NCBI GenBank assembly: GCA_027596035.1
Contig: JADGJA010000757.1
Coordinates: forward strand, 1-11,196
DNA from: Thoreauomyces humboldtii
Lineage: Eukaryota > Chytridiomycota > Chytridiomycetes > Spizellomycetales > Powellomycetaceae
Direction of reading: 5' to 3'
DNA length: 11,196 nt
Shown here: positions 1 through 10,583 of the stretch, piece by piece
Position numbering within the stretch: position 1 is the stretch's first letter
Layout of the letters: each line of letters starts with the position of its first letter
Made by a program: the position numbers and the translations under genes
The notes under the pieces: generated by a model
Database searches by the model: none
Seen by the model: the letters and a program-made list of their open reading frames with translations, nothing else
What the model was told of the DNA's origin: nothing

Positions 1-26
1 CCCCCCCAGGTGTCACGCACATCAGG

Positions 27-42
27 GTGACGATATGAATAA
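27..42 (+). promoter_or_regulatory. 17-nt gene-start motif, plus copy 1
   Basis: The sequence GTGACGATATGAATAA matches the window-wide consensus GTGAcaatATGAATAGA except at the end. It is followed by a hairpin-forming, rRNA-like stretch and heads an open frame beginning Met-Asn-Lys. By analogy with the copies that abut tRNAs, it probably marks a transcript start or processing point. Whether its ATG is used for translation is unknown. Confidence 0.6.
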
Positions 43-529
43 GGAGAAGGAATGGTGGCTCATCTCTTCTCAGCCACTAATTGGGGAGTGGCCTGTCGTC
101 GGCCTTTCGCCTAATTGCAGGTGATCTAATTAGAGGGTACCAACTAGTTGGTTATTTATCTTTTGGATTCTAACTATTGTAGTAGCTGTCGATCATCTTG
201 ATTTATGATCGACTTGAGGCCGACTCCCACAGGGACACCTTCGGTGGCTCGTAGAGAAGAGCTACGCGACTGGTTGGGACCACCGGTACCGACGAGACTC
301 TTTGTGATATACCTGTGATTGCAACTACAATTGCCTCATCTACAATTAGTGATTGGACCTGAGGTGGATAATTAATCATCTATTGTTCATGTTTTAGGTC
401 AGACCGATTCTAGACCATACCAACTATTTCAAATCCCGCGAAACTATTTTTCGTTATGGTATCCCTAGATTTCTACTACAATCTGTTACAAATAGACCTA
501 GCACAATATGTAATCGTAATCTAATATAA
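35..529 (+). CDS. open frame of 164 codons headed by the motif (MNK...), unassigned
   Basis: The frame begins at the ATG inside the motif and runs to UAA if UAG and UGA are sense. It has three in-frame UAG and five UGA. Residues about 39-52 are hydrophobic (WLFIFWILTIVV) and could be a single membrane segment; the rest is mixed and Arg/Trp rich. I recognise no family. The first 90 bases may instead be an rRNA fragment. The last 100 bases carry a dispersed repeat (core AAACTATTTTTCGTTAT) and overlap coding-like sequence on the other strand. So the frame could be accidental, with real content only in its middle. Confidence 0.25.
43..130 (+). rRNA. possible 5'-end fragment of mitochondrial SSU rRNA
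   Basis: This stretch starts where the gene-start motif ends. About 13 nt in, at 56-62, it carries TGGCTCA, the core of the near-universal SSU 5' element, which sits at a similar distance from the end in bacterial 16S rRNA. A colinear GGCCT (101-105) and TTGCAGGTGA (115-124) follow, resembling the GGCCT...ATGCAAGTCG order of bacterial 16S. Hairpins can form, for example GTGGCT with AGCCAC. The last part recurs near 7815 as a dispersed repeat, which weakens the case. The fit to the separate central SSU piece at the other end of the window, also directly behind a motif, supports a scattered rRNA gene. The 3' limit is unknown. Confidence 0.35.
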
Positions 530-720
530 CAGGTAGAGATGATAACTATTATAGTTGAATTCAAGAACAATATCCGTTACCAATAGAGGATAACAGGGAC
601 ACCTAATACAATAACTAATATGATAGCAACTGTAATTAAACTAGCAGAATATAATCCAAATTAAGTAAAAGGTAAGACCAATAAAATAATACCATAAAAT
701 ACATCTTGGTATGGGGTGGT
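454..720 (-). CDS. membrane-protein-like coding stretch, one frame with two UAA
   Basis: Read on the minus strand from 720 down to 454, a single frame gives strongly hydrophobic, low-charge sequence, for example SASLITVAIILVIVLGVP at about 645-592 and NSTIIVIIS further on. UAA occurs in frame at 661-663, 577-579 and at the end. The strand is T-rich, as expected for sense strands of mitochondrial membrane proteins. It lies just downstream of the minus-strand tRNA at 729-801, so it could be read from the same transcript. Either the UAA codons are real stops, the frame is restored by editing, or this is a decayed gene. The family is not identified, though an NADH dehydrogenase subunit would fit the composition. 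Confidence 0.35.
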
Positions 721-728
721 ATGCACCC

Positions 729-801
729 TCTAAGCGATAGGAATCGAACCTACAACCTCTGGTATAAGATACCATCGCTCTTACAATTAAGCTACACCAA
801 C
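729..801 (-). tRNA. tRNA with apparent anticodon CUU (Lys), mismatched acceptor stem
   Basis: The minus strand folds as a tRNA. It has a 7-nt acceptor strand, TA, a D arm (GCTT/GAGC), an anticodon arm with loop ATCTTAT (U33, CUU, A37), a 5-nt variable loop, and a T arm GTAGG-TTCGATT-CCTAT. The acceptor strands GTTGGTG and CGCTTAG mismatch at pairs 1 and 3 and have two or more G-U pairs. The top of the anticodon stem is an A-G mismatch. CUU would read AAG as Lys. UUU is more usual for mitochondrial tRNA-Lys, so the identity is provisional. Acceptor mismatches suggest post-transcriptional repair. The gene-start motif lies 16 nt upstream. Confidence 0.8.
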
Positions 802-817
802 TTTTCTATTTTCCCTA

Positions 818-834
818 TCTATTCATATTGTCAC
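818..834 (-). promoter_or_regulatory. 17-nt gene-start motif upstream of the CUU tRNA
   Basis: The minus strand reads GTGACAATATGAATAGA, the exact consensus. It is 16 nt upstream of the tRNA at 729-801. The intervening bases contain a second partial AATAGAAAA immediately before the tRNA, as if the motif end were duplicated. Confidence 0.65.
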
Positions 835-870
835 AATGATATGTTCCTACACCTACAACCACACTTACAG

Positions 871-1122
871 TTATCATAGAGACCAAATGATTACCTAACT
901 TGTCACGAATAGCTACCGCAGTTTAGGGTAGAGCTAATTGTAAATCATTACGTAAATTGTAAACTAGGTAAATAATAAAAGGTGATTGATTATAAAACTA
1001 CAACAGGACGAGGTCACGATAAGAGTGATCAGGAATCTAAAACAGTAGTTAATTAAATCCCAGTAGAAGTAGACCAATCACAACCTCAATCCCAATGGAA
1101 CCAAATAAAATAGTAATAATAA
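871..1122 (-). CDS. T-rich 83-codon open frame, membrane-protein-like
   Basis: With UAG and UGA as sense, the minus frame from 1122 to the UAA at 871-873 is open and very hydrophobic. It starts LLLLFYLVPLG, continues with WLVYFYWDLINY, and later has IINHLLLFT. The same frame runs further upstream to 1383, broken by UAA at 1273-1275, 1159-1161 and 1123-1125. The pieces may therefore belong to one gene whose message is corrected, or to a decayed gene. Low charge, high Leu/Phe/Tyr and strand T-richness fit a mitochondrial respiratory membrane subunit. No diagnostic motif was found. Confidence 0.35.
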
Positions 1123-1332
1123 TTAATAAAAGATAGATCATAAATAATGGAATCTATATTATAATAGTAATACAAATATAATACCAACTATACATGAACA
1201 ATTAGAATTAATAAAGTATATCATAAAGTATAACCTAATTAGAATCTAAAATATAATTACAATCCATCCCAATTAGTAGATCATAATACTAATAAAGTAG
1301 TAACTATTGCAGTTGTAGGAATTGTAATAATC

Positions 1333-1340
1333 CCCGCGGG
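1333..1340. repeat. CCCGCGGG palindrome
   Basis: This is a perfect 8-bp GC palindrome within AT-rich sequence, preceded by another C. The same core occurs at five other places in the window, and similar short GC clusters are a known feature of some fungal and protist mitochondrial genomes. Confidence 0.7.
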
Positions 1341-1408
1341 AAATATTCAAATTCGGGTTCAAATCAATATTTCAATTTACAAATTATGTTATCATATACC
1401 TACGACAA

Positions 1409-1654
1409 TTATTGATGTTTGACATCAGACCGGTTTTCAAATCTCAAACTATTTATGTTACTAGTTGAATCTAAAATATAGAATAACTAATAAAGTAGAT
1501 CATAACTCAATTGAGAAATAGAATCAGTCCTAATTAATGATAATCTATTAGAAAGATAAATAATATAACCTAGATTTATAAATAGTAATCTTAGAGGGAA
1601 GATATACCTAAATAATCCCAATATACCATGTACTAGAAATGTAGGACCCAATAG
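1409..1654 (-). CDS. 81-codon hydrophobic open frame, unassigned
   Basis: The minus strand runs from just after a UAA (1655-1657) to the UAA at 1409-1411 and includes one UAG. It reads as membrane protein for most of its length, for example FLVHGILGLF, then FPLRLLFINLGYIIYLS and SQLSYDLLYYLFYIL. The last 20 codons run into a dispersed repeat. It overlaps the 3' end of the frame at 1591-1752 in a different register, so a frameshift between them would join two coding-like pieces. Family unknown. Confidence 0.35.
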
Positions 1655-1752
1655 TTAATTAAATAAAGTAGTAATAATAACAGACCTTGTACTACAATTA
1701 GATCATAACCTAATACATTAGATGATAACTAAAAGATATATACTTGTAGATC
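1591..1752 (-). CDS. 53-codon hydrophobic open frame, middle piece
   Basis: The minus frame between UAA at 1753-1755 and UAA at 1591-1593 uses two UAG codons. It encodes segments such as NVLGYDLIVVQGLLLLLLY and INYWVLHFYYMVYWDY, which look like one transmembrane helix plus an aromatic region. Its start overlaps the end of the 127-codon frame at 1698-2081 in another register, and its end overlaps the next frame. The three together look like successive pieces of one coding region with frame breaks. Confidence 0.35.
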
Positions 1753-2081
1753 TTAAATAAGTAAGGATAAATCTAAATGTAAAACATAAAATAGAATCAA
1801 TTATAAAATAGGAATCTAAAACATGATACCTAATTGTACCCAACTAAAATAGAATAAGTATAACCTAAAATAGGAATCTAGATGTTAATTAAAAGTGTAG
1901 GAGCGTAGCTACGACTAGAAATATCATTCATCTACAACAGGTCAAGACCAATCATACCCAATCAATTAATCATAAATCATAGAAAGGTATAAATTAAAAT
2001 AATCAATCATCCACCCGTAGGGATACCAATCAATCGTAGCAAATCAAAAACCTAAAATCCAAATTCCATCTCTCTATTCAT
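1698..2081 (-). CDS. 127-codon open frame headed by the motif (MNR...), UAG and UGA in frame
   Basis: The frame starts at the ATG of the minus-strand motif (Met-Asn-Arg, with another Met at codon 5) and ends at UAA 1698-1700. It has six in-frame UAG and four in-frame UGA. Residues about 25-41 (WLIILIYTFLWFMINWL, three of these Trp from UGA) form a clear membrane helix. Later parts are rich in Tyr, Phe and Ile. UAA would be expected about four times by chance in such AT-rich sequence, so the open frame is informative. Some internal segments (around 2010 and 1945) are dispersed repeats. No family was recognised; a respiratory-chain membrane subunit is the natural guess. Confidence 0.45.
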
Positions 2082-2089
2082 AATCTCAC
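2073..2089 (-). promoter_or_regulatory. 17-nt gene-start motif, minus, heading the 1698-2081 frame
   Basis: The minus strand reads GTGAGATTATGAATAGA. It forms a divergent pair with the plus copy at 2144-2160, separated by 54 bp that include an ACCGGT repeat. Its ATG is in frame with the 127-codon reading frame. Confidence 0.65.
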
Positions 2090-2143
2090 CGGTGGGTGTA
2101 TAAGGTAAAACCGGTAACGAGGTCAGGTCTAGAGCATATCGTA

Positions 2144-2160
2144 GTGACGTTATGAATAGG
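2144..2160 (+). promoter_or_regulatory. 17-nt gene-start motif, plus, divergent partner
   Basis: The plus strand reads GTGACGTTATGAATAGG, facing away from the minus copy at 2073-2089. It heads a short Met-Asn-Arg frame. Confidence 0.65.
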
Positions 2161-2343
2161 TAGGGACTGTGAGCCACCACAGGACCTCGTCACCTCGAGC
2201 GGGCGGGATTTGGGGAGGGACGAATGATCGACTACCAGATTCCTACAGGGACAGCAATTACTATTACCTGCAACTAGAAGAGGAGACCAATTAGATCATC
2301 CTGATCTTTTGGTCCGATTGTAGAAATCAGAAACAATAATTAA
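2152..2343 (+). CDS. 63-codon open frame headed by the motif (MNR...), unassigned
   Basis: The frame runs from the motif ATG to UAA at 2341-2343, with two UAG and two UGA as sense. The product would be basic and mostly soluble, with no membrane segment. Early bases (2161-2225) are GC-rich and can fold (GTGAGCC...), so a small structured RNA behind the motif is a real alternative. It contains one copy of the GGACGAATGATC repeat (2218 onward). No homology recognised. Confidence 0.3.
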
Positions 2344-2770
2344 TGATAAGTTAGGAAAATATACACCTACATTCCTACATCCTTCCTAGGTTAGATTCCT
2401 AACAAATAGATGGTATCATACCAACCCTACAAGAGGCGGACCATCTAGATGACCCCGTAGGGATACCATCACACCCTGCGACTGACCTACACGGGTCGAG
2501 TTGTGAATAAGTTGGTATCGGTCTTGATTTGATTGGACCGACACTTGTTTGTAGTTGACATCTCAACTAGTTGGTATCATCTAGATTCCTAATCGTAGAT
2601 TTACATCGTTACCACGTAGGGACGAATGATCCCAAACCCACGGGGATTGTAACAAGTAGGTGAGTTGCAAATATGGTAAGACCTCAAACATCTAGGGTAG
2701 GAGTTGCAACTAATAGAAGTATAACCTAAAAAGGAAGATAACTAATAACAGAAATAAAATAGAAATATCA

Positions 2771-2784
2771 TTTCCCGCGGGAAA
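2771..2784. repeat. extended CCCGCGGG palindrome (TTTCCCGCGGGAAA)
   Basis: A perfect 14-bp palindrome. The flanking AAATATxCAAATTCG also follows the copy at 1333-1340, so a longer unit of about 25 bp was copied between the two sites. Confidence 0.7.
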
Positions 2785-3099
2785 TATACAAATTCGACCT
2801 CAGTTCTCATTTACAAACCCGTTACACCTACACCGAGGTGGATGAATGATCATTGGTTGCAATGATTGACCCCATGCAATCGTAAAATAGTTTGTCAGTT
2901 GGTAAATCGGGAAGACCTCGAACTTTCGATCCTGAACAATAGGTTTTGTTGGTATGATACCGCAGGTGTAGGAGTCTAAATCATGATATACCATAACGGA
3001 AAAGATGGTACCAACTAGTTGCCATCAATCCAAATAATGTTATAAATCGAGCCCAAGTCATACCATAACGGGAAAAGTCGACCGGTGGGGCAACCGGAC

Positions 3100-3200
3100 A
3101 GAGGTCAAACATCAAAAAGAAAGATAGATACATATATACTTATTCGATTAGAGATACTACTAATATTATAATTAAAGGTAGATTTGGATTTCAACTACAA
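3100..3200 (+). repeat. (TA)n-hairpin repeat family, copy 1
   Basis: The order of blocks is GAGGTCAAACATC, a purine-rich link, TACATATATACTTATT, then ACTACTAATATTATAATTAA and GATTTGGATTT. The same order recurs in other copies, with the TACTTATT...AATAAGTA hairpin imperfect here. Confidence 0.6.
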
Positions 3201-3299
3201 TAGATGATAACCTAAGGTCTAGACCTACCTAATCGGTACCAACTAATATCTAAGATTAATATTTTATGATTTACAACCTAATCGGTATCCCGACAGGAC

Positions 3300-3400
3300 C
3301 TCTAATATGTAGGATAGATATATATATATATTTACTACTAATATTTTAATTAATCGTAGATTTAGATTTGTAATGTTTGACCTCGGTCCAACTTCTCATC
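3300..3400 (+). repeat. (TA)n-hairpin repeat family, copy 2
   Basis: This copy has AATATGTAGGATAGATATATATATATA, then TACTACTAATATTTTAATTAA and GATTTAGATTTG, followed by GTTTGACCTCGG. It is closest to the copy near 8941 (shared ATATGTAGGATAGAT). Confidence 0.6.
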
Positions 3401-3523
3401 GGGCTAACTTTTCACAACCCATCTAGATGGTTAGGAGCTGCGCACTAGGAGGGGTGCCAACCCTAGTCGATACCAACTACAAACAGAGTTGCAACATAAA
3501 CTCCCTACCAACTACACCCGTTG

Positions 3524-3540
3524 GTGAGAATATGAATAGA
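3524..3540 (+). promoter_or_regulatory. 17-nt gene-start motif, plus, heading 3532-3831
   Basis: The plus strand reads GTGAGAATATGAATAGA, identical to the copy that abuts the tRNA at 7694. No tRNA follows here; instead a Met-Asn-Arg frame continues for 99 codons. Confidence 0.65.
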
Positions 3541-3831
3541 AGGAGAAGTCATTCGTCTAAATCTAAAATGAGATCTGATATTATTTATGTTGGAATACCT
3601 AAAATATTGGTAGGAGCTCGAAGTTGACAAAATCCCGCGGGGTCGTAGACATGAGGTCCCACGGTATCATCTACCTCAGGTGCAATATCAATTCCTAATT
3701 GGGACAATCGACCCAAAAGTGAAAAGATGATCTACCTCCCTCGTAGGGCCGCAGGGACGGAGGCGCAGCATGTAGATGGCACTGGTGCAATCACAAAGAG
3801 TCTCGTAGGGACGATCAATCACCGTAGGTAA
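3532..3831 (+). CDS. 99-codon basic open frame headed by the motif (MNRRR...)
   Basis: The frame starts at the motif ATG and ends at UAA 3829-3831, with one UAG and two UGA in frame. The product is basic and hydrophilic (MNRRRSHSSKSKMRS at its start, later LPRRAAG), unlike a respiratory membrane subunit and more like an RNA-binding or ribosomal protein in composition. The same frame is open upstream back to 3247, so the motif ATG is chosen only by position. It crosses a CCCGCGGG palindrome (3634-3641) and dispersed repeat blocks, which argues for caution. No family recognised. Confidence 0.35.
3634..3641. repeat. CCCGCGGG palindrome
   Basis: Another copy of the GC palindrome, here followed by G (CCCGCGGGG), lying inside the 3532-3831 open frame. 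Confidence 0.6.
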
Positions 3832-3867
3832 GAGGTCATACCATCTAAATTCCAAAACCACTCTTAA

Positions 3868-3950
3868 ATATAACATCAAAAATAAAGATATATATATATT
3901 TATTCTTACCTTTAATTGAATAAGTATTACTAAGGGGTAAAATATCATTC
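3868..3950 (+). repeat. (TA)n-hairpin repeat family, copy 3
   Basis: The copy reads AACATCAAAAATAAAGATATATATATATTTATTC, a loop, GAATAAGTATTACTA. The arms TATTC/GAATA replace the TACTTATT/AATAAGTA arms of other copies, so pairing is kept while bases differ. Confidence 0.6.
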
Positions 3951-4024
3951 CAACTACAATCTGCCCTACCAATTTTATAATCGACCTACTTTCACAATTC
4001 ACGCGGGAATTGATCACTTTTATC

Positions 4025-4684
4025 ATGATTCCAATATTCCACCCGCGATACTATTTACGTTACGATATATCAACTTTCACAAATCTAGATGTACGAATCG
4101 ATGCAAGTCCCCGACTAGTTGGTACCCATCTATTTATTAGCTACTGCAATTAGACCAATACCTCAAAACCCACGACAATTATTCCCTATCCCTTTGGGTG
4201 CAAACTATCAAGTCGATTACCTTTGATCATCTACCTCCTAGGACAATATCTGTTAGGTGCAAGTCACCAATTAGATGAGAAACAAGATGGACCATCGGTT
4301 TCATACCAACCTACCATCGCAGGGACAAGCAAACTCGACAGGTACGACCCCAGACCTACATCTCAACGAGCTAACTTTTCTGTGAGTGGTTTTTCAATTA
4401 TCATATTATTTGATACCTACGGTTGTCCCAACATGGATGTTGAAACTATTTATGTTATCATTTATCAAATCGTGATTGGTCCCAACTAGTTGGTCTTGAC
4501 CTGTTGTAACTGTACCTGCTGTGGCCTCTTACCTAAGGGCCTATCTAGTAGAGTTGTGATACTTTTAATTCTAATTGGTCTAGACCTAGCCCAGTCAAGC
4601 GTAGCTCATGTCTGTTACAGACCTAGATGATTACCAACAAGGTCCCTTGGGTGGGTCGGTACCTATCACAACCAGTATTTCTAA
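4025..4684 (+). CDS. 219-codon open frame, longest in the window, unassigned
   Basis: The frame runs from ATG 4025 to UAA 4682-4684 with only two UAG (4151, 4487) and one UGA in frame; it is open upstream to 3941. The stretch from the TTG at 4223 to the UAG at 4487 is open even without reassignment. The product mixes soluble segments with hydrophobic ones, for example LPLIIYLLGQYLLGA, SGFSIIILFDTY and VVILLILIGLDLA. A Cys-rich patch (CCNCTCC) follows the second UAG. It contains dispersed repeat blocks, including a CAACTAGTTGG palindrome. No domain was recognised and no gene-start motif precedes it, so it may be a chance frame in UAA-poor DNA. Confidence 0.3.
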
Positions 4685-4957
4685 TTGAGGTGCTACATCT
4701 CTAAGATAAATCAGTTACAAAAGGACCAATTAGCTACTGCAATCACAGGACGAAGGATCAACAAGATGATCTGCAACTACAATAACTGTCGGTGGTCCCC
4801 GCCCACGGGTCGGTGCCATGCACCCTTTCGGCAGTCTCGGAGAGAATGTGGCATGCCTGCCACAGTGAAGGGTCCCCTATCTAGATGTTAGAGGTCTTGT
4901 GCTACAACAATAACTGATGTCCCTATGATACCGACGGTTATCATCTTGATTATCTAA
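4685..4957 (+). CDS. 90-codon open frame continuing the same register
   Basis: This frame begins directly after the UAA that closes 4025-4684 and stays in the same register to UAA 4955-4957, with one UAG. The product is basic and Cys-rich in the middle (CNYNNCRWSPPTGRCH). Bases 4790-4875 are GC-rich and fold into neat hairpins (GGTGC-CAT-GCACC and GTGGCA-TGCC-TGCCAC), so this section may instead be a structured RNA, possibly an rRNA piece. Readthrough of the UAA would join it to the preceding frame. Confidence 0.25.
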
Positions 4958-4964
4958 TTGCTAA

Positions 4965-5221
4965 TTAGGAATATAGTTGTCTATCATGTTGACCTCTTCT
5001 ACCAGGAACTGTTGGCACTAGTCGGGACTTGCCTCGCATGTCTTCGACAAGCTCTTCTCGTAGAGAAGGGCATCCCTTCGGGTTAGTGCCTAGTCGTAGG
5101 CACAAGGTGTGCCAACTCCTAGCGAGTGCAAACCCTGGGTTAGGTGCAAGAGTTGTCATCTAACTACATTTCTAGGTGGTGGTATGAGGCCACACCAACA
5201 TGCCAATCATCATACACCCTC
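4965..5221 (-). other. GC-rich hairpin zone downstream of tRNA-Trp, possible structured RNA
   Basis: On the minus strand, directly 3' of tRNA-Trp, several strong hairpins occur, including CTTCTC-GTA-GAGAAG near 5055 and a GGCACTAACCCGAAGGGATGCC stem near 5070-5090 (arms only quoted in part by position). A basic open frame (5159 to UAA 4965-4967, 64 codons) covers it but matches no family I know. Position behind a tRNA and motif, GC content and pairing suggest an rRNA fragment, but I could not align it to SSU or LSU. Confidence 0.3.
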
Positions 5222-5293
5222 CATCGGTGATAGGAATCGAACCTATATCGCTGGTTTTGGAGACCAGAATTCTAACCCTTGAACTACACCCTT
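5222..5293 (-). tRNA. trnW: tRNA-Trp (anticodon CCA), mismatched acceptor stem
   Basis: The minus strand folds as a clean tRNA. It has D arm GTTC/GAAT, anticodon arm CTGGT-CTCCAAA-ACCAG with anticodon CCA, a 4-nt variable loop, T arm ATAGG-TTCGATT-CCTAT, and discriminator G. The acceptor strands AAGGGTG and CACCGAT mismatch at pairs 2 and 3, so editing of one strand is needed for a normal stem. CCA reads UGG; UGA would need a modified wobble base or editing of C34 if UGA is Trp here, as the reading frames suggest. The gene-start motif ends exactly at the base before its 5' end. Confidence 0.9.
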
Positions 5294-5310
5294 TCTATTC
5301 ATAATGTCAC
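5294..5310 (-). promoter_or_regulatory. 17-nt gene-start motif abutting tRNA-Trp
   Basis: The minus strand reads GTGACATTATGAATAGA and the tRNA begins at the very next base. This fixes the motif's 3' edge as a mature or primary 5' end. Confidence 0.8.
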
Positions 5311-5315
5311 TACGA

Positions 5316-5332
5316 TATGTTTATGAATAGAT
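5316..5332 (+). promoter_or_regulatory. degraded gene-start motif, plus, in inverted pair with 5294-5310
   Basis: ATATGTTTATGAATAGA keeps the ATGAATAGA half but not GTGA. With the minus copy it forms an inverted repeat (CTATTCATAA ... TTATGAATAG) only 10-20 bp apart, which could be a bidirectional start or a cruciform. Confidence 0.45.
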
Positions 5333-5430
5333 GACCTCACTTATCATTTAATTGTGTCCCTCCGGTCCTAGGTACCTATTGTAGTTGTAATAACTATTGG
5401 TTTGATAGGTCTTGACCATCTAGTTGGTAA
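5323..5430 (+). CDS. 35-codon open frame headed by the degraded motif (MNR...)
   Basis: The frame runs from the ATG to UAA 5428-5430, with two UGA and no UAG. It is too short and featureless for a family call and is included because it keeps the motif-plus-Met-Asn-Arg arrangement. It could equally be the start of a structured RNA. Confidence 0.2.
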
Positions 5431-5558
5431 TCATTTTATTTATTAGTTATCATCTTACCTTTCTCTTTTTGGGTTGGAACTTGGTGTCGAGCCACCTGCC
5501 TCTGAGGGTAGGTGGTCATACGGTGGTACCAGACCAGTTTCTCTTTTAATTTATTAGG

Positions 5559-5789
5559 ATGAATGATCAATTAGATGATCTACTCCCTACGGTTGTACCA
5601 CCCCTGAGGACGAATGATCGACTAGGGTGTGGTATCCAACCTATTACCTCTGTCCCTACGGTGATTGTGACTAATCATTCGTCCTGTTGTAGATCCAATC
5701 GTGTCCTCATCCCCGCGGGGCCACGCCAACTACATTTCTAGTCGACTAGCTACGAGAGCTCTTGTCGTAGCCAAACATGTAGGTGATAA
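5559..5789 (+). CDS. 76-codon open frame, unassigned
   Basis: The frame begins MNDQLDDLLPTVVPP and is open under the standard code to a UAG at 5739-5741. With UAG and UGA as sense it reaches UAA at 5787-5789. It contains two copies of the GGACGAATGATC repeat, one in each orientation (about 5609 and 5673), and the CCCCGCGGGG palindrome. Much of its sequence is therefore shared repeat rather than unique coding, and a chance frame is quite possible. Confidence 0.2.
5711..5720. repeat. CCCCGCGGGG palindrome
   Basis: A perfect 10-bp version of the GC palindrome family. Confidence 0.6.
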
Positions 5790-6120
5790 AGTTGGTAAAA
5801 TAGGAATCTAGTTGGTAACTACAAACAGAAAAAGTATGAGGCTTGAAAAACTGGTCTAACATATTGTACCTAAATCCCAAATCTACCCTTATATATTGTA
5901 TTAGAAAGGTAGATGGTATAACGTAACGGAAATAATTCCTAATAAACTAGTAACTATAATCCTACTAAATATTAGATAACTAGAATAGAAATATTACTAA
6001 TAAAGGTAAGAATATTAGAATAAATACATATTAATTAAAGGTATATCATAAATAAGTAAGGATAAATCTAAATGTAATACCCAATCAATCCTAAAATAGC
6101 AAAAGATGCAGATATACGAT

Positions 6121-6162
6121 TAGCGGAGCTTGCCTTCAGCATGCGATGCAAGCCAAAGGCTA
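6121..6162. repeat. GC-rich hairpin inserted in AT-rich coding-like DNA
   Basis: TAGC (6121-6124) pairs with GCTA (6159-6162) and GCTTGC (6128-6133) with GCAAGC (6148-6153), with GCATGC in the loop. It stands out sharply in base composition from its surroundings and does not belong to the other repeat families seen here. Confidence 0.5.
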
Positions 6163-6165
6163 GAA

Positions 6166-6387
6166 TTAGATTCCTAACAAAGTGATGGTGAATAAGCGTA
6201 GTGGTATGAGCATGAACGTAGTGGTATAATTAATAACAGATGAATTAGATGAGAAATATCATAACCTAATTCAAGACAAGGTCCCTTCTACCAACTATTC
6301 AGGATGGACAATAACTAATAATCCTAAATAGAACCTCATTAATAAATATAAATATAGTTGTACCCTTAGACCAAGTAGATCATAATA
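6166..6387 (-). CDS. 73-codon open piece, unassigned
   Basis: The minus frame between UAA 6388-6390 and UAA 6166-6168 includes one UAG and two UGA. It has hydrophobic runs such as LYLYLLMRFYLGLLVIV and FMLIPLRLFTITLLG. It overlaps the 6245-6433 piece in a different register, so only one of the two can be coding at any point, or the register changes within the overlap near 6300. It ends near the GC-rich hairpin. Confidence 0.3.
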
Positions 6388-6433
6388 TTAGAAATAGTAA
6401 TAATAGGAAGGTATAACCAAATAAACTAGTTAA
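6245..6433 (-). CDS. 62-codon open piece with faint cox3-like segment
   Basis: The minus frame from 6433 to UAA 6245-6247 begins LTSLFGYTFLLLLFLILW and continues SKGTTIFIFINEVLFRIIS. The FIFINEVLF part resembles the helix of cytochrome c oxidase subunit III that carries an invariant Glu in a [ILF]-[IS]-E-V-x-F-F setting. The preceding piece (6434-6523) has TILVLGLYFS, also reminiscent of subunit III, but in the wrong order relative to it. I treat this as a hint only. The piece could be a shuffled or decayed cox3 or another membrane subunit. Confidence 0.3.
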
Positions 6434-6523
6434 TTAAATTGAGAAATATAATCCCAATACTAATATAGTTACAATCAATGGATACTAATTACTACTAATA
6501 GAAGTATAAAATAGTAATCATAA
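6434..6523 (-). CDS. 29-codon hydrophobic open piece
   Basis: The minus frame between two UAA, with one UAG and one UGA, contains PLIVTILVLGLYFSI. It lies in the same register as the 6245-6433 piece, separated from it by a single UAA at 6434-6436. If that UAA were read through or edited, the two would join into a 92-codon frame. Confidence 0.25.
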
Positions 6524-6809
6524 TTAAAACCTAAAATAGAAAAGGTAAACCATAAATAATTATAGAAATAATTCCTACTAACTAGTTACAACTAAAGTAG
6601 ATAAGTAGTAATTCTAAATTAGTAAGAACCTAACCTAATTAAGTAGAAGTAGAATAACTAATCGTAGATTTGCATTACTGATCTAGCTCGCTAGTAGATC
6701 TTAATCATTGATTATAAGTAATAATTATTGTATTTGATCATGTAAATTATAGGTAAAAGTAGAACCTAATATATCATAAAGTTGGTAAATCGTTACCAAT
6801 ATTTCCCTC

Positions 6810-6826
6810 TCTATTCATATTGTCAC
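6810..6826 (-). promoter_or_regulatory. 17-nt gene-start motif, minus, heading the T-rich region
   Basis: The minus strand reads GTGACAATATGAATAGA, the exact consensus. It forms a divergent pair with 6877-6893, 50 bp apart, a spacing close to that of the pair at 2073/2144. Confidence 0.7.
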
Positions 6827-6876
6827 CCGTAGGTGCTCTAAGTGACAACTCGAGGCTACAGGGTTAACACAAGGCT

Positions 6877-6893
6877 GTGAGAGTATGAATAGG
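6877..6893 (+). promoter_or_regulatory. 17-nt gene-start motif, plus, heading 6885-7196
   Basis: The plus strand reads GTGAGAGTATGAATAGG. It is the divergent partner of 6810-6826. Confidence 0.65.
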
Positions 6894-7196
6894 AAAGGAG
6901 CAGGTATGAATGTTGGTTGGGACCTCTTTTGCTTTTTTGCATCGGTGTTGGCCTGCCCGTAGGGAGCGGTATCGTAGACAATTCTAGATGTTGTCCAAGT
7001 AGATGTTGTAGGAGTAGAAATGTTGGTAACTCTTAGATATGAGCTAGAACCTGAACTGATTTATCTTTCTATTTTATTGTAGTTGCACCCTTAGGTACAA
7101 GTAGATGTTGTAGTTGGAATATTATTGTTTAGGATCGATTAGTTTGATCCTTAGATGAGGACTAGAAATCATGGTATAACGGAAAAAGTAGGTTAA
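6885..7196 (+). CDS. 103-codon open frame headed by the motif (MNRKG...), six UAG in frame
   Basis: The frame runs from the motif ATG to UAA 7194-7196 with six UAG codons and no UGA, which makes it one of the clearest tests of UAG reassignment. The predicted product has a hydrophobic early part (WDLFCFFASVLACPYGAV), an acidic centre (RYELEPELIYLSILLYL) and repeated VQVDVV blocks. The latter come from the dispersed CAAGTAGATGTTGTAG repeat. No family was recognised. The last third enters a repeat shared with 8894 onward (ATGGTATAACGGAAAAAGTAG), so the gene may end earlier than the UAA. Confidence 0.4.
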
Positions 7197-7204
7197 ATCT
7201 AGAA

Positions 7205-7275
7205 TTGGTCCAAGGTCGAATATCAAAAATAGATATACATATATACTACAACTAATATAGATGGGTTTATATGGA
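7205..7275 (+). repeat. (TA)n-hairpin repeat family, copy 4 (short)
   Basis: The copy has GGTCGAATATCAAAAATAGATATACATATATACTAC followed by a truncated tail (GGGTTTATATGGAT). It lacks the hairpin arms, so it looks like a deleted copy. Confidence 0.5.
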
Positions 7276-7676
7276 TCTACATTTCTAGATGTTGTATTAC
7301 TAATTGAGTTATACTTTATTTAATTGTTTCTAATTGAGGTTGTAATTGCAACCCATCTAGATGGTATCTAATTGTTTCCAATCAATAAATGCAGTTGCTC
7401 TCGTCGTAGCACCGTAGGTGTCGGTGTAACCGTAGGGACGATCAATCATTTGCTATGACTCTTCTCCTCTGTTGGTCCAATGATAACTGTAGATGGTCCC
7501 ACCTGTGGGACCTGTGATTGTAACTAATCATTCGTCCTGTAGGCCTCGCAGGGTCATAGGGATACACCCTCTCGAAGATAAATAGATAGGTACAGGTAGC
7601 GGATGATACATCTAGATGTTGTAGGAGTCCGTAGGTGTTTAAAAGGAGGTGACCTCATTGGTACAATCATACCTCA
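7276..7676 (+). other. repeat-rich spacer before a tRNA, no gene assigned
   Basis: The spacer contains ATCTAGATGG, CTAATTG and CGTAGGGACG blocks and an AATCATTCGTCCTGT copy near 7525. A TAACCGTAGGGACG segment (7427-7440) is superficially like the 3' end of SSU rRNA but belongs to a repeat also found near 3806. I see no convincing frame or RNA. Confidence 0.4.
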
Positions 7677-7693
7677 GTGAGAATATGAATAGA
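7677..7693 (+). promoter_or_regulatory. 17-nt gene-start motif abutting a tRNA
   Basis: The plus strand reads GTGAGAATATGAATAGA and the tRNA starts at the next base. This is the second case of exact abutment, on the opposite strand from the tRNA-Trp case. Confidence 0.8.
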
Positions 7694-7764
7694 AAGGGTG
7701 TAGTTTAATAGTTAGAGCTGTAATATTTATATTATAAGTGTAGGTTCGATTCCTACTGCCCTTG
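7694..7764 (+). tRNA. tRNA with an unusual anticodon arm, isoacceptor uncertain
   Basis: Acceptor strands AAGGGTG and TGCCCTT pair fully (two G-U). The D arm is GTTT/GAGC, the T arm GTAGG-TTCGATT-CCTAC, and the discriminator G. The anticodon arm is odd: TGTAA pairs with TTATA around an 8-nt loop TATTTATA, or as a 7-bp stem with a 4-nt loop, leaving only a 3-nt variable loop. No standard 7-nt loop with U33 forms. The best alignment with U33 and a purine at 37 gives UAU (Ile, AUA) at the cost of an A-A mismatch. The arm may be altered by editing, or the gene may be degenerate. The 5' acceptor strand is identical to that of tRNA-Trp. Confidence 0.8.
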
Positions 7765-7830
7765 TCGTAGGCCTGAGGTTGTGATAGGTCTAGACCTTAC
7801 CTACGGCCCATCTTGTTGCAGGTGATCTAA

Positions 7831-8439
7831 TTTAGTTTTATTTTTACATATCTGTTTCTATTTTTAACTTTTGAATTTACTTCTCCTCTTTTATTTATCT
7901 TCTTGTTGGGATACCGTACCTTAGGAAGTGTAGCTGTAGGAATGCCAGCGTAGCAGAAGATATCTAATTTAGGTAGCTAGTTACCTACATTAGCAGGTAC
8001 AACCATCGGTACGAAGGGACAAGGACCTCGAGTCCTCTTAGATACGTAGTCTATTATTAATTGGTCTTCTGGTTTGGATTTCAATTAGTCTTCTAATAGT
8101 TACGTAGATTACTGGATCTACTTTACCTATACCTTAGGAATAGATGTAGTTGTAACAGGCTCTAGCATAAGAGGGTTAATTTACCTAATCATTAACCTAA
8201 CTTATCATTTATTCCTGTTCTACTTTTAGATTTATAATATTTCAAATAGTTAGGTAATTTGTCCTTAGGTCGGGGTCCCCTCCCCCGGGGGGGAAGAGGT
8301 GCTAAAAGAAGAAAGATATCGAGGAGGCAAGGATGGTTGAGGGACCGAGGTCCTGATGTAGGTCATCTTGATTATTTGTAGTAGGTCGAGACCTTGTAGT
8401 TGACATCGCTAGAGGTAGGACCGACTGTAGGAATCTTAA
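7831..8439 (+). CDS. 202-codon open frame with eleven in-frame UAG, unassigned membrane protein
   Basis: The frame opens after a UAA at 7828-7830 and ends at UAA 8437-8439. It holds eleven UAG and two UGA. The N-terminal 28 codons are hydrophobic (FTYLFLFLT, then SPLLFIFLLGY). A polar middle follows (VAVGMPAYQKISNLGSYLPT, where Y is UAG in the first and last case). A second membrane segment lies at about codons 115-135 (GLIYLIINLTYHLFLFYFY). After codon 145 the sequence becomes GC-rich and repeat-like, so the true end may lie near 8265. No ATG occurs before codon 38, so the start is uncertain. I compared it by eye with cox, cob, nad and atp subunits and found no secure match. Confidence 0.45.
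8277..8293. repeat. C-run/G-run palindromic GC cluster
   Basis: CCCCTCCCCCGGGGGGG, an imperfect all-GC inverted repeat in AT-rich surroundings. It marks the point where the frame 7831-8439 loses its membrane-protein character. Confidence 0.6.
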
Positions 8440-8683
8440 ACTATTTGCGTTATTAGTTAGGATTCAGGTGTATATTTTCCTATTTTATGGTTTGTATTTA
8501 TTTTATCATTTCACCTTTTAGGATTTGTTAGGTGTAGACACGCGGGTTATTTTAGGTAGTTGGTCTGATTTAGGTACCAAGTTAGGTAATCATTTGGTTC
8601 CTACAAGTTTTAGATTACTACTATTTATGATTGCTGTAGCTATTTTATTATTTCTTAATTTACCTAATGTTTTAGAATTCTAA
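8333..8683 (+). CDS. 116-codon open frame with C-terminal membrane helix
   Basis: The frame runs from ATG 8333 to UAA 8681-8683, in the register next to the preceding frame, with one UAG and two UGA. It shows LKLFALLVRIQVYIFLFYG, then LGVDTRVILGSW, and ends with a clear helix LLLFMIAVAILLFLNLPN at about residues 95-112. The end of the protein is convincing, while the first 40 codons overlap GC-rich repeat DNA. The other register over 8440-8589 is also open, so some of this is ambiguous. There is a vague likeness to ATP synthase subunit c (atp9) in the small-residue stretch plus a terminal helix, but I do not rely on it. Confidence 0.4.
8438..8469 (+). repeat. exact 32-bp direct repeat, copy A
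   Basis: It begins AAACTATTTGCGTTATTAG and ends GATTCAGGT, and is identical to 9075-9106. Shorter relatives of its core (AAACTATTTnCGTTAT) occur near 433, 1447 (as ATTTATGTTA), 4445 and 10973. Confidence 0.8.
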
Positions 8684-9001
8684 CTCCTAGATTAGGTAAC
8701 TCTTAGGATGTAGAGCATATCTCTACGAGAGGTCTTGATTAGAATCTACCTGTTACAACAGGTCGAGATGACTCTTGTCCATACGGTAACTGATTTAGAT
8801 TTTGATTTAGCTTCTACTACTTATCTAATTGGTCTCGACTAGTATAGTTGGTTTGTAATTGGATACCTGATTGACTTTAGCTGTAGGTCCTAGAGGTCAC
8901 GATGGTATAACGTAAAAAGTAGACCCGTTGGTAAATCAGTCCGAGGTCAAATATGTAGGATAGATGTATATATATATATATACTTATTTATAAAAGAATA
9001 A
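8684..9001 (+). CDS. 105-codon open frame, weak candidate
   Basis: It continues the register of the preceding frame after its UAA and is open to UAA 8999-9001 with three UAG. An early part reads plausibly (VTDLDFDLASTTYLIGL, then SWFVIGYLIDF), but from about 8895 it lies in the (TA)n-hairpin repeat and is certainly not unique coding. The adjacent frame is also open over 8668-8910, so neither is secure. Confidence 0.2.
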
Positions 9002-9106
9002 GTATTATTACTACTATATGTAAGAGTAAATCTAGAATTCAGGTACAATATGTGACCCCGGTTTTGGAATTGAGAAACTATTTGCGTTATTAGTTAGGAT
9101 TCAGGT
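8893..9106 (+). repeat. (TA)n-hairpin repeat family, copy 5 (long)
   Basis: The full block order is visible here: ATGGTATAACG-AAAAAGTAGA, GTTGGTAAATC, GAGGTCAAATATG, a TA run, the perfect hairpin TACTTATT-TATAAAAG-AATAAGTA, TACTACTA, GAGTAAATCTAGA, TTCAGGTACAATATGTGACC, and the AAACTATTTGCG block. This is the best reference copy for the family. Confidence 0.75.
9075..9106 (+). repeat. exact 32-bp direct repeat, copy B
   Basis: Identical to 8438-8469. Here it is the right-hand end of the long repeat copy, which suggests that copy A is a partial element inserted next to a coding frame. Confidence 0.8.
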
Positions 9107-9215
9107 TGTACAAGTAGGTAAAAGCATCGCAGGTTGTAGTAGAGGCCACCGGTAGGTGATAGAAATAGAAGGGACCTCGATCTCGAGTCGATCAATAAAT
9201 CCTAAAAAGTTTAGG

Positions 9216-9233
9216 AATTCCCCCGCGGGAATT
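9216..9233. repeat. extended CCCGCGGG palindrome
   Basis: AATTCCCCCGCGGGAATT: arms AATTCCC and GGGAATT around the GC core. Confidence 0.7.
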
Positions 9234-9380
9234 GTCTACTTCTAATTAATTATTTACTTATTTATCATTTATCTAATATTAGTAATTTACATTCGAAGGG
9301 ATCTCGATACCTGATCTATTTTAGGTTCTACTAGTATATATAAATATTATGATCTATTAGGTTTAGGTATTATAATATAA

Positions 9381-9929
9381 GGTTCTACTTCTACTAGTAT
9401 TTATGTTACGATCTTTAGATCTATCTATTAGTATCTAATTGGGAATGATTGGTCTTTACTAGGTAGTTATCTTCTTACCTTTATTAGGTTGGTACGACCC
9501 TCCTGCTGCAACTACAATTAGATTCCTGAGGGAGTAGATCTTTCGTCCCAAGGTAAGTGGTGCAAGGTCAAACATGTAGGTAGGTATCCTACCCTCCTTG
9601 ACTTCTAGGTATCAGAGGATCTAGAAGAGATACCGGTAGAGATCACAACTTGACCCGCGGGGTGGTGTATCATCTCAACCTCAGGCGCTACGACCTCTGA
9701 AACCTACGCCTCATCTAGATGGTACAACAAGATGATTTGATACTCTAATAGTTACCAAGAGGCGAGCCTCGAAGGAAGAGGCACTCGTGCTACAGTTACC
9801 AACTATTTTAGCAAAAGGGGTCTACACGAGAATCAGATTATTTACATAACCGATGCCCTTAAGCATCACCAGCTTCATCCGACTGGCTCTTCTGGGTGGA
9901 TACATGCCGTATCCTGCAGTTGCTGGTAA
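9381..9929 (+). CDS. 182-codon open frame running into antisense rRNA, weak candidate
   Basis: The frame opens after UAA 9378-9380 and closes at UAA 9927-9929, with three UAG and two UGA. The first 35 codons look coding (SIYVTIFRSIYYYLIGN, then LLGSYLLTFIRL). The remainder is soluble, charged and partly repeat. From about 9821 it is antisense to the SSU rRNA piece, so the 3' part cannot be trusted. A gene, if present, probably ends before 9600. Confidence 0.2.
9654..9661. repeat. CCCGCGGG palindrome
   Basis: Sixth copy of the GC palindrome, in the context ACCCGCGGGGT. Confidence 0.6.
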
Positions 9930-10257
9930 ATATTGATGCAGGTTCCCCTGCGTTGTATCGATGACCTTCTCGGATCCTTCCCGTGCTATTCCTTAAAGAA
10001 TATACGATGGCCGCCAATAGGGTTTCTTTGGCTCTTTGCAGAGCGGAGCGCGGGCTCTCTTAGTACTCATACCTATGCTTAATGGAATAACCGAGGACAT
10101 ACACTCGCAGGCAGTGTAATAACCTGTAGCCCTGAATATTAAACCATTATCTTATAAATCTAGATTTCTTACTTTGGCTGTTATGATTAAACACTAACAG
10201 TTAATTCACTAAGGATGTAAATCCTGATTATTCTACCGGATACCCTCAGGTTCCTTC
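9821..10257 (-). rRNA. rns: central/3'-major fragment of mitochondrial SSU rRNA
   Basis: Read on the minus strand, conserved SSU elements appear in the correct order. GGTAGAATAATCAG (10237-10224) is like the GGTAGAATTCCAG region. ACAGGTTATTACACTG (10127-10112) is like the ACAGGATTAGATACCCTG loop. CTTTAAGGAATAGCACGGG (9998-9980) is like CTCAAAGGAATTGACGGG. TCGATACAACGCAGGGGAACC (9961-9941) is like TCGATGCAACGCGAAGAACC. GATGCTTAAGGGCATC (9867-9852) and TTATGT...CTCGTG follow, like the bacterial 1170-1240 region. It spans roughly bacterial 16S positions 650-1240. The 530 loop and the 3' minor domain are absent, so the gene is in pieces. It starts at the motif boundary; the 3' end is approximate. 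Confidence 0.75.
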
Positions 10258-10274
10258 TCTATTCATATTGTCAC
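10258..10274 (-). promoter_or_regulatory. 17-nt gene-start motif abutting the SSU rRNA fragment
   Basis: The minus strand reads GTGACAATATGAATAGA, the exact consensus. It shows that the rRNA piece has its own start, like the tRNAs, and is therefore a separate gene piece and not an internal part of a longer rRNA. Confidence 0.75.
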
Positions 10275-10299
10275 GTGAGTATGCTCGTGACCATGAACT
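10275..10299 (+). promoter_or_regulatory. possible degraded plus-strand motif opposite 10258-10274
   Basis: GTGAGTATG (10275-10283) and GTGACCATGAACTC (10287-10300) each keep part of the motif in the divergent position seen at the other pairs. Neither keeps the ATGAATAGA core. Confidence 0.25.
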
Positions 10300-10583
10300 C
10301 GAGCTCGGTGTCGACTCGACGACTAGAGCTACTGCATTTATTGGTTAGAGACAAATGGTGGTCGGCTGATGCGACCCTGTCACTGTGATCATGCTCCGCC
10401 TCTGAGGTTTGTGACTTTTCACGCTGTTAGCACCTGTGGTGCCTGTCGTATACATCTTGTCCTCGGTCCGATTTGTCTACGGGTCTAGGTGCAAGACCTT
10501 GTCGCAGCACCAAGGGGCGCAGCTCCTAGTAGCAGGTTGGCAACTACATGCTTCGTCTCTTGTAGGTCCTTCGACAGGTGTAA
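10281..10583 (+). CDS. 100-codon open frame in GC-rich DNA, weak candidate
   Basis: The frame runs from ATG 10281 to UAA 10581-10583 with four UAG and one UGA. It is Ser/Leu/Cys/Arg rich with no clear membrane segment or motif. The region is about half GC and rich in small inverted repeats (GTCGACTCGAC, CACCTGTGGTG), so a structured RNA fits at least as well. It could be another rRNA fragment, but I could not align it. Confidence 0.2.

What the first reader, a model, noticed from the sequence alone, without database searches (positions are those of the whole stretch)
27..10299. A 17-nt motif GTGAcaatATGAATAGA sits at the head of tRNA, rRNA and open-frame genes on both strands
Nine good copies (27-42, 818-834 minus, 2073-2089 minus, 2144-2160, 3524-3540, 5294-5310 minus, 6810-6826 minus, 6877-6893, 7677-7693), a tenth at 10258-10274 minus, and degraded copies at 5316-5332 and 10275-10299. 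It touches the first base of two tRNAs on opposite strands and the SSU rRNA piece. A shared start signal for every gene class, with the transcript or mature RNA beginning right after it, resembles a mitochondrial promoter or a universal processing site. Its ATG-AAT-AGR core also opens Met-Asn-Arg frames, so it may serve two roles.
Basis: partly seen in the sequence, partly recalled or inferred. Interest (0 to 1): 0.88.

Follow-up and report, generated by a model that had tools for sequence, protein, structure and literature searches.

The report
Yeast-like mitochondrial promoter beside tRNAs
Ten copies of one short DNA signal on an 11-kb mitochondrial-looking contig are best read as transcription start signals for a phage-like (T7-type) RNA polymerase, two of them sitting so tightly against transfer-RNA genes that the RNA probably starts two or three letters before the tRNA, whose first letters may then need correcting.

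Summary
The motif is real: 10 copies (5 per strand), 0.08 expected. It is longer than reported: an upstream CA (10/10), GTGA, TATGAATA and a purine run R-R-N-A-G-G-G; flanks beyond are random (9 of 10 copies). Copies score 27-39 leave-one-out; the next site in the window 4.9. The three tRNAs found start 0, 0 and 16 nt after a copy. The core matches yeast's ATATAAGTA at 7 of 9 positions in six copies, 6 of 9 in four. Other contigs carry two Rpo41-type polymerase genes. Best reading: mitochondrial promoter, starting at motif position 15.

Not supported: a Met-Asn-Arg start and the two 'degraded copies'. The SSU rRNA claim is inconclusive and mostly against. Six of ten copies head no gene I recognise.

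New: tRNA acceptor mismatches (4 of 21 pairs, two tRNAs) all lie in pairs 1-3, and the genome has a Thg1 and a Thg1-like protein, suggesting 5' tRNA editing. In tRNA-Trp both mismatched bases are ones the promoter consensus calls for. No RNA data were available.

The parts
18..47 (+). promoter copy 1 (CA box to purine run; 17-mer at 27-43); no recognised gene downstream
814..843 (-). promoter copy 2, its 17-mer 16 nt upstream of tRNA 729-801
729..801 (-). tRNA gene; anticodon loop AUCUUAU (Lys CUU by my reading); acceptor mismatches at pairs 1 and 3
2069..2098 (-). promoter copy 3, head-to-head with copy 4; no recognised gene downstream
2135..2164 (+). promoter copy 4; no recognised gene downstream
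3515..3544 (+). promoter copy 5; no recognised gene downstream
5290..5319 (-). promoter copy 6; its 17-mer abuts tRNA-Trp and its purine run is the first tRNA bases
5222..5293 (-). tRNA-Trp (CCA); acceptor mismatches at pairs 2 and 3
6806..6835 (-). promoter copy 7, head-to-head with copy 8; no recognised gene downstream
6868..6897 (+). promoter copy 8; no recognised gene downstream
7668..7697 (+). promoter copy 9; its 17-mer abuts tRNA 7694-7764
7694..7764 (+). tRNA gene with fully paired acceptor stem but an anticodon loop of odd length (identity unclear)
10254..10283 (-). promoter copy 10, upstream of the only low-redundancy stretch of the window
9840..10257 (-). possible gene, perhaps a divergent rRNA piece (unproven; borders set by eye; the low-redundancy part measured is 9951-10150)
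   Evidence: for; against:

Best explanation
The motif is the core of a mitochondrial promoter read by a single-subunit (Rpo41/T7-type) RNA polymerase encoded in the nucleus. Shown by sequence: a block with CA at motif positions -8/-7, GTGA at 1-4, TATGAATA at 8-15 and a purine run at 16-22, at ten places on both strands. Inferred: the polymerase, perhaps with an Mtf1-like factor, binds the GTGA/TATGAATA face, melts AATA and starts at the A at position 15 (+1 A, +2 G in 9 of 10). The transcript then begins A-G-(A/G)-N-A-G-G-G, so the two abutting tRNAs would be made with a leader of about 3 nt. Inferred too: tRNA 5' ends with acceptor mismatches in pairs 1-3 are trimmed and rebuilt by a Thg1-like 3'-5' polymerase.
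For: 10 copies v 0.08 expected. Sharp block edges: mean pairwise identity of 9 of 10 copies (copy 1 dropped for want of upstream DNA) is 0.89 in the motif and 0.46 and 0.55 in the adjoining 9 and 7 nt (0 of 1000 random sets reach these), 0.25-0.27 further out (random 0.27). CA 10/10; no C in 80 cells of columns 16-23. Leave-one-out scores 27-39; with the full matrix 35-43, next site 4.9, maximum of 20 mononucleotide shuffles 13.6. 3 of 3 tRNAs start 0-16 nt after a same-strand copy; 100,000 random placements never reached 3 (the limit was set after looking). Two head-to-head pairs, P 0.007 (75-bp limit set after looking). Core v yeast ATATAAGTA: 7/9 in six copies, 6/9 in four (consensus in passages of PMC8979003); fits C. 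albicans WWATAGGTA at the ATRRRTA level (PMC4618339 section 9). Two Rpo41-type genes in the assembly. A copy in contig C445 lies in about 300 bp of window-like DNA.
Against: No transcript data: no start site is shown. Six of ten copies head no gene that I recognise and a seventh heads only a doubtful one. No mitochondrial protein gene was found in the window or, for COX1, COX3 and PF00361 (NAD2/4/5), in the assembly, so the mitochondrial assignment is inferred. One PF00398 locus was found and no separate Mtf1. The core match to yeast is short and post hoc. The copy in C69 has no window-like flanks by composition (0 of 30 bins).
Confidence: 0.85

Rival explanations
1. RNA processing signal: the motif is cut in a longer transcript, freeing the 5' ends of tRNAs and rRNA.
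For: Two copies end exactly at a tRNA 5' end; yeast mitochondria do use processing signals (passage of PMC8979003, for 3' ends).
Against: Conserved CA and GTGA boxes lie well upstream of the end, and the block continues into the RNA; two head-to-head pairs are natural for promoters; the third tRNA is 16 nt away; six copies have no recognised gene to free.
Confidence: 0.07
2. Replication-priming promoters or origins: RNA started here primes DNA synthesis, tRNA linkage being secondary.
For: The yeast nonanucleotide is linked to RNA priming of DNA replication (title in the reference list of PMC7939475); six copies head no recognised gene.
Against: All three tRNAs found are tightly linked to copies; ten origins in 11 kb would be many.
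Confidence: 0.04
3. Dispersed mobile or recombinogenic short repeat spread by copying, without promoter function.
For: The window is rich in short repeats (8-mers: 1.93 further copies each v 0.77 expected).
Against: Identity drops to random just outside the block; no intermediate decayed copies in the window; 3 of 3 tRNA linkage.
Confidence: 0.03
4. Translation start: the ATG AAT AGR core opens Met-Asn-Arg proteins.
For: Every copy contains an ATG.
Against: ORF codons from the ten ATGs are 32,3,9,3,38,19,23,25,7,12 (table 4), not significantly longer than other ATGs, P 0.29; two have a stop as fourth codon.
Confidence: 0.01

Closest known systems
Yeast mitochondrial nonanucleotide promoter (S. 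cerevisiae ATATAAGTA; C. albicans WWATAGGTA), Rpo41-Mtf1
   Same: AT-rich core ending in TA at +1, usually a purine at +2, copies on both strands, near tRNA genes; Rpo41-type polymerase gene present.
   Different: Conserved block of about 31 bp (columns -8 to 22) rather than 9, with CA and GTGA boxes upstream and an AGGG run downstream; core triplet GAA instead of AAG or AGG.
T7-type phage promoter (23 bp)
   Same: Long conserved block, single-subunit polymerase family, start next to ATA, purine-rich first bases (23-bp length: PMC7939475 passages; T7 letters recalled). In C. albicans one promoter resembles T7 with its +1 A at T7's -1 (PMC4618339), as A15/G16 would here.
   Different: Upstream letters do not match T7 as I recall it; host-encoded mitochondrial-type polymerase.
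Mitochondrial 5' tRNA editing (Acanthamoeba, Dictyostelium, Spizellomyces and others)
   Same: Mismatches limited to acceptor pairs 1-3 and a Thg1-like protein besides Thg1 (PMC4284800 passages).
   Different: Here one edited-looking end overlaps the promoter's initial transcribed sequence; no edited RNA has been seen.
Leaderless tRNAs of Nanoarchaeum equitans
   Same: Promoter placed so precisely that it sets the tRNA 5' end (PMC4284800 passage).
   Different: Archaeal; here a leader of 2-3 nt is predicted, and mismatches suggest editing.

Membership tests
Yeast-type mitochondrial promoter | nonanucleotide core from -8 to +1 | tested here: met
   NTATGAATA v ATATAAGTA: 7 of 9 in the six copies with A at position 7, 6 of 9 in the other four (consensus); a variant, not identical
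Yeast-type mitochondrial promoter | +1 A with +2 A, G or T | tested here: inconclusive
   Sequence fits (A at 15 in 10/10; G at 16 in 9/10, A in 1) but the start site is not mapped
Yeast-type mitochondrial promoter | Rpo41-type polymerase gene | tested here: met
   two loci, C219 and C489
Yeast-type mitochondrial promoter | Mtf1 initiation factor | tested here: inconclusive
   PF00398 found one locus, C251, in two stretches; a divergent Mtf1 could be missed
Yeast-type mitochondrial promoter | transcripts start at the motif | not testable with these tools
   no RNA data
T7 phage promoter | T7 consensus upstream of -4 | tested here: not met
   the conserved upstream boxes here are CA and GTGA; compared by eye with T7 letters recalled
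5' tRNA editing | mismatches only in acceptor pairs 1-3 | tested here: met
   4 mismatches in 21 pairs of 3 tRNAs (in 2 of the 3), all in pairs 1-3, P 0.021
5' tRNA editing | Thg1-like protein distinct from Thg1 | tested here: met
   C347 stretch matches Thg1-like entries 4kgk and 5axk only; C545 stretch matches four Thg1 sequences at about 2e-29 or better and 4kgk weakly
5' tRNA editing | mature tRNA differs from the gene at these bases | not testable with these tools
   needs tRNA sequencing
SSU rRNA | covariance-model match | tested here: not met
   9700-10330 at E up to 10: no rRNA family, two unrelated weak matches on the other strand

The most novel reading that the evidence does not exclude
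Promoter and tRNA gene overlap: the promoter's purine start (N-A-G-G-G) doubles as tRNA bases 1-5, so an acceptor stem may not be encodable correctly, and a Thg1-like 3'-5' polymerase rewrites the first bases. In this view 5' tRNA editing pays for promoter-tRNA fusion, and the two diverged Rpo41 paralogues may divide the promoters (GTGAC, six copies; GTGAG, four) between them.
Probability: 0.25. Interest if true: 0.75.

Novelty: new variant of a known kind. Interest (0 to 1): 0.57.

Why it matters
Mitochondrial promoters are known in detail from few lineages (my general knowledge). A block of about 31 bp with a yeast-like core suggests how much promoter sequence a Rpo41-type polymerase can use, and gives an annotation tool for this organism's missing mitochondrial DNA. 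The promoter-tRNA overlap offers a testable reason why 5' tRNA editing might persist.

Tried and rejected
Protein genes: six frames with stops read as residues gave one Pfam match, E 0.091, below its cut-off, and no PDB match at E up to 1. Three-base periodicity was low throughout, but I ran no shuffle control for it. rRNA: no rRNA family in the whole window or in 9700-10330, 1-900 and 2100-3000 searched apart. An alignment of 9800-10259 minus with an E. coli 16S stretch recalled from memory scored 27: 750 of 1000 shuffles reach that, and other tiles of the window score up to 42. Fold z -0.35. One SSU-like word, chosen after looking, matches exactly at 9941-9961 minus. Folding downstream of the copies: of 20 tests only copy 1 over 250 nt stands out (z -4.2). 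Motif in viral contigs: 0. 7600-8000 against plasmids: no match. A radial-spoke search for flagellate kinship found nothing and had no positive control. TATGAATAGAAAGGGTG with two mismatches gave 8 places outside the window against 1 for the reversed control; I read them as mostly chance and did not follow them further than a local blastn of the six that became loci. The organism could not be named.
Full report
Setting. The window is the whole of contig C724 of a 20.67-Mb, 823-contig assembly of an unnamed organism. The only genes I can name in it are three tRNAs: tRNA-Trp 5222-5293 minus, one at 729-801 minus and one at 7694-7764 plus. Six-frame scans gave no Pfam match above its cut-off and no PDB match. 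Short words recur more than expected (8-mers: 1.93 further copies each v 0.77). The assembly shows no COX1, COX3 or PF00361 match, so other mitochondrial DNA is probably missing from it, or its genes are not readable by such a search.

The observation. A search with up to three mismatches finds ten copies, 0.08 expected. Across the ten copies, C and A at motif positions -8 and -7, GTGA at 1-4 and TATGAATA at 8-15 are invariant, and columns 16-22 read R R N A G G G by majority; columns 16-23 hold no C and five T in 80 cells. For nine of ten copies (copy 1 lacks enough upstream DNA) mean identity is 0.89 in the motif, 0.46 and 0.55 in the adjoining blocks and random beyond. Leave-one-out scores are 27-39; with the full matrix the ten score 35-43 and the next site 4.9, while 20 shuffles reach 13.6. 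The two 'degraded copies' are not among the 20 best sites printed, though 5322-5331 is an exact core.

Placement. The three tRNAs begin 0, 0 and 16 nt after a same-strand copy; 100,000 random placements never gave three within 16 nt. Two pairs of copies (2073 minus/2144 plus; 6810 minus/6877 plus) are head-to-head within 75 bp, P 0.007. Both limits were chosen after looking. Copy 10 lies upstream of the only stretch of the window with fewer repeats than expected (ratio below 0.75), 9951-10150. Six copies (1, 3, 4, 5, 7, 8) head nothing that I could recognise.

Same organism? The pattern GTGANNNTATGAATAGR has 11 exact matches in the assembly: nine of the ten window copies, C69 and C445; the reversed control has none. 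The longer pattern with up to two mismatches gives the ten window copies plus those two; at three mismatches eight further places appear, against five in all for the reversed control, so most of those are probably chance. In C445 the copy lies in about 300 bp of window-like composition (3 of 30 bins of 100 nt positive, consecutive). In C69 no bin is positive, though 39 nt match the window at 79% (E 7e-4). C26 holds a tRNA-Trp piece (98% over 42 nt; 87% over 60 nt reaching into a decayed core). C216 matches over 42 nt, with no window-like composition at the site. (All unless said.) I read C445 and C26 as nuclear mitochondrial fragments and C69 and C216 as possible ones; this argues that the contig belongs to this organism.

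Mechanism. The core NTATGAATA matches the yeast promoter ATATAAGTA at 7 of 9 positions in six copies and 6 of 9 in four (consensus read in passages of PMC8979003), and shares the ATRRRTA pattern with C. albicans WWATAGGTA (PMC4618339, section 9 read). Yeast promoters start with +1 A and A, G or T at +2 (PMC4191429, abstract start and passages); here that is A at 15 and G at 16 in nine of ten. The assembly has two Rpo41-type polymerase loci. The C219 gene matches the yeast mitochondrial RNA polymerase entry at 572 bits and human entries at 399 (which organism each entry is from is recalled). The C489 gene, translated in one frame that covers only its N-terminal exon properly, matched the yeast entry alone, at 77.5 bits. 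Exon by exon the two share 323 of 551 aligned residues in the C-terminal part and 151 of 392 in the N-terminal part, and both keep HQDGTCNGLQHYAAL and HDS(Y/F)WTHA; that these stretches bear catalytic residues is recalled. One PF00398 locus was found and no separate Mtf1.

tRNA ends. Of 21 acceptor pairs in the three tRNAs, four are mismatched, in two tRNAs, all within pairs 1-3 (P 0.021). This is the pattern of mitochondrial 5' tRNA editing known from Acanthamoeba, slime moulds and chytrid fungi, with Thg1-like proteins as the likely repair enzymes (PMC4284800, passages). The assembly has two Thg1-family loci: one best matches Thg1 structures, the other only Thg1-like proteins. In tRNA-Trp the mismatched bases 2 and 3 (A, G) are those that the promoter consensus N-A-G-G-G calls for. 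That is one case. The other mismatched tRNA has a 16-nt leader, so overlap cannot be the only cause, and the third tRNA overlaps the promoter with no mismatch at all.

Against. No RNA data exist here. The Met-Asn-Arg idea fails. The SSU assignment stays open and is mostly unsupported: no rRNA covariance match, a recalled E. coli alignment below shuffles and below other tiles of the window, and one SSU-like word picked after looking. Literature: the listings of searches (51 and 70 showed 15 of 24 and 10 of 18 papers) showed no title or abstract start that names this motif or such an overlap; I saw passages of six papers (one section of one of them in full), and the library lacks most subscription journals (the chytrid editing paper PMC1370609 is not held). 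So I do not claim that it is unpublished.

Noticed in passing
L018 (C219), L019 (C489): Two diverged Rpo41-type RNA polymerase genes in one assembly (323 of 551 aligned residues identical in the C-terminal exon).
   Followed up: partly
L042 (C545), L043 (C347): One Thg1 and one Thg1-like protein gene, fitting 5' tRNA editing.
   Followed up: partly
window 7694-7764: tRNA whose anticodon loop comes out one base short (one search gives a two-letter anticodon); a base may be missing through sequencing error or be supplied by editing.
   Followed up: no
window, dispersed (e.g. CATCTAGATG): Short palindromic words recur through the spacers.
   Followed up: no
L002 about 1400-1700; L017 1487-1542; L001 and L037 near 1500: Apparent or possible nuclear mitochondrial fragments; three of the four carry the motif or a near-copy and were found with it, so no enrichment is claimed.
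   Followed up: partly
window 42-291 +: The 250 nt after copy 1 fold better than shuffles (z -4.2); a structured RNA may lie here.
   Followed up: no
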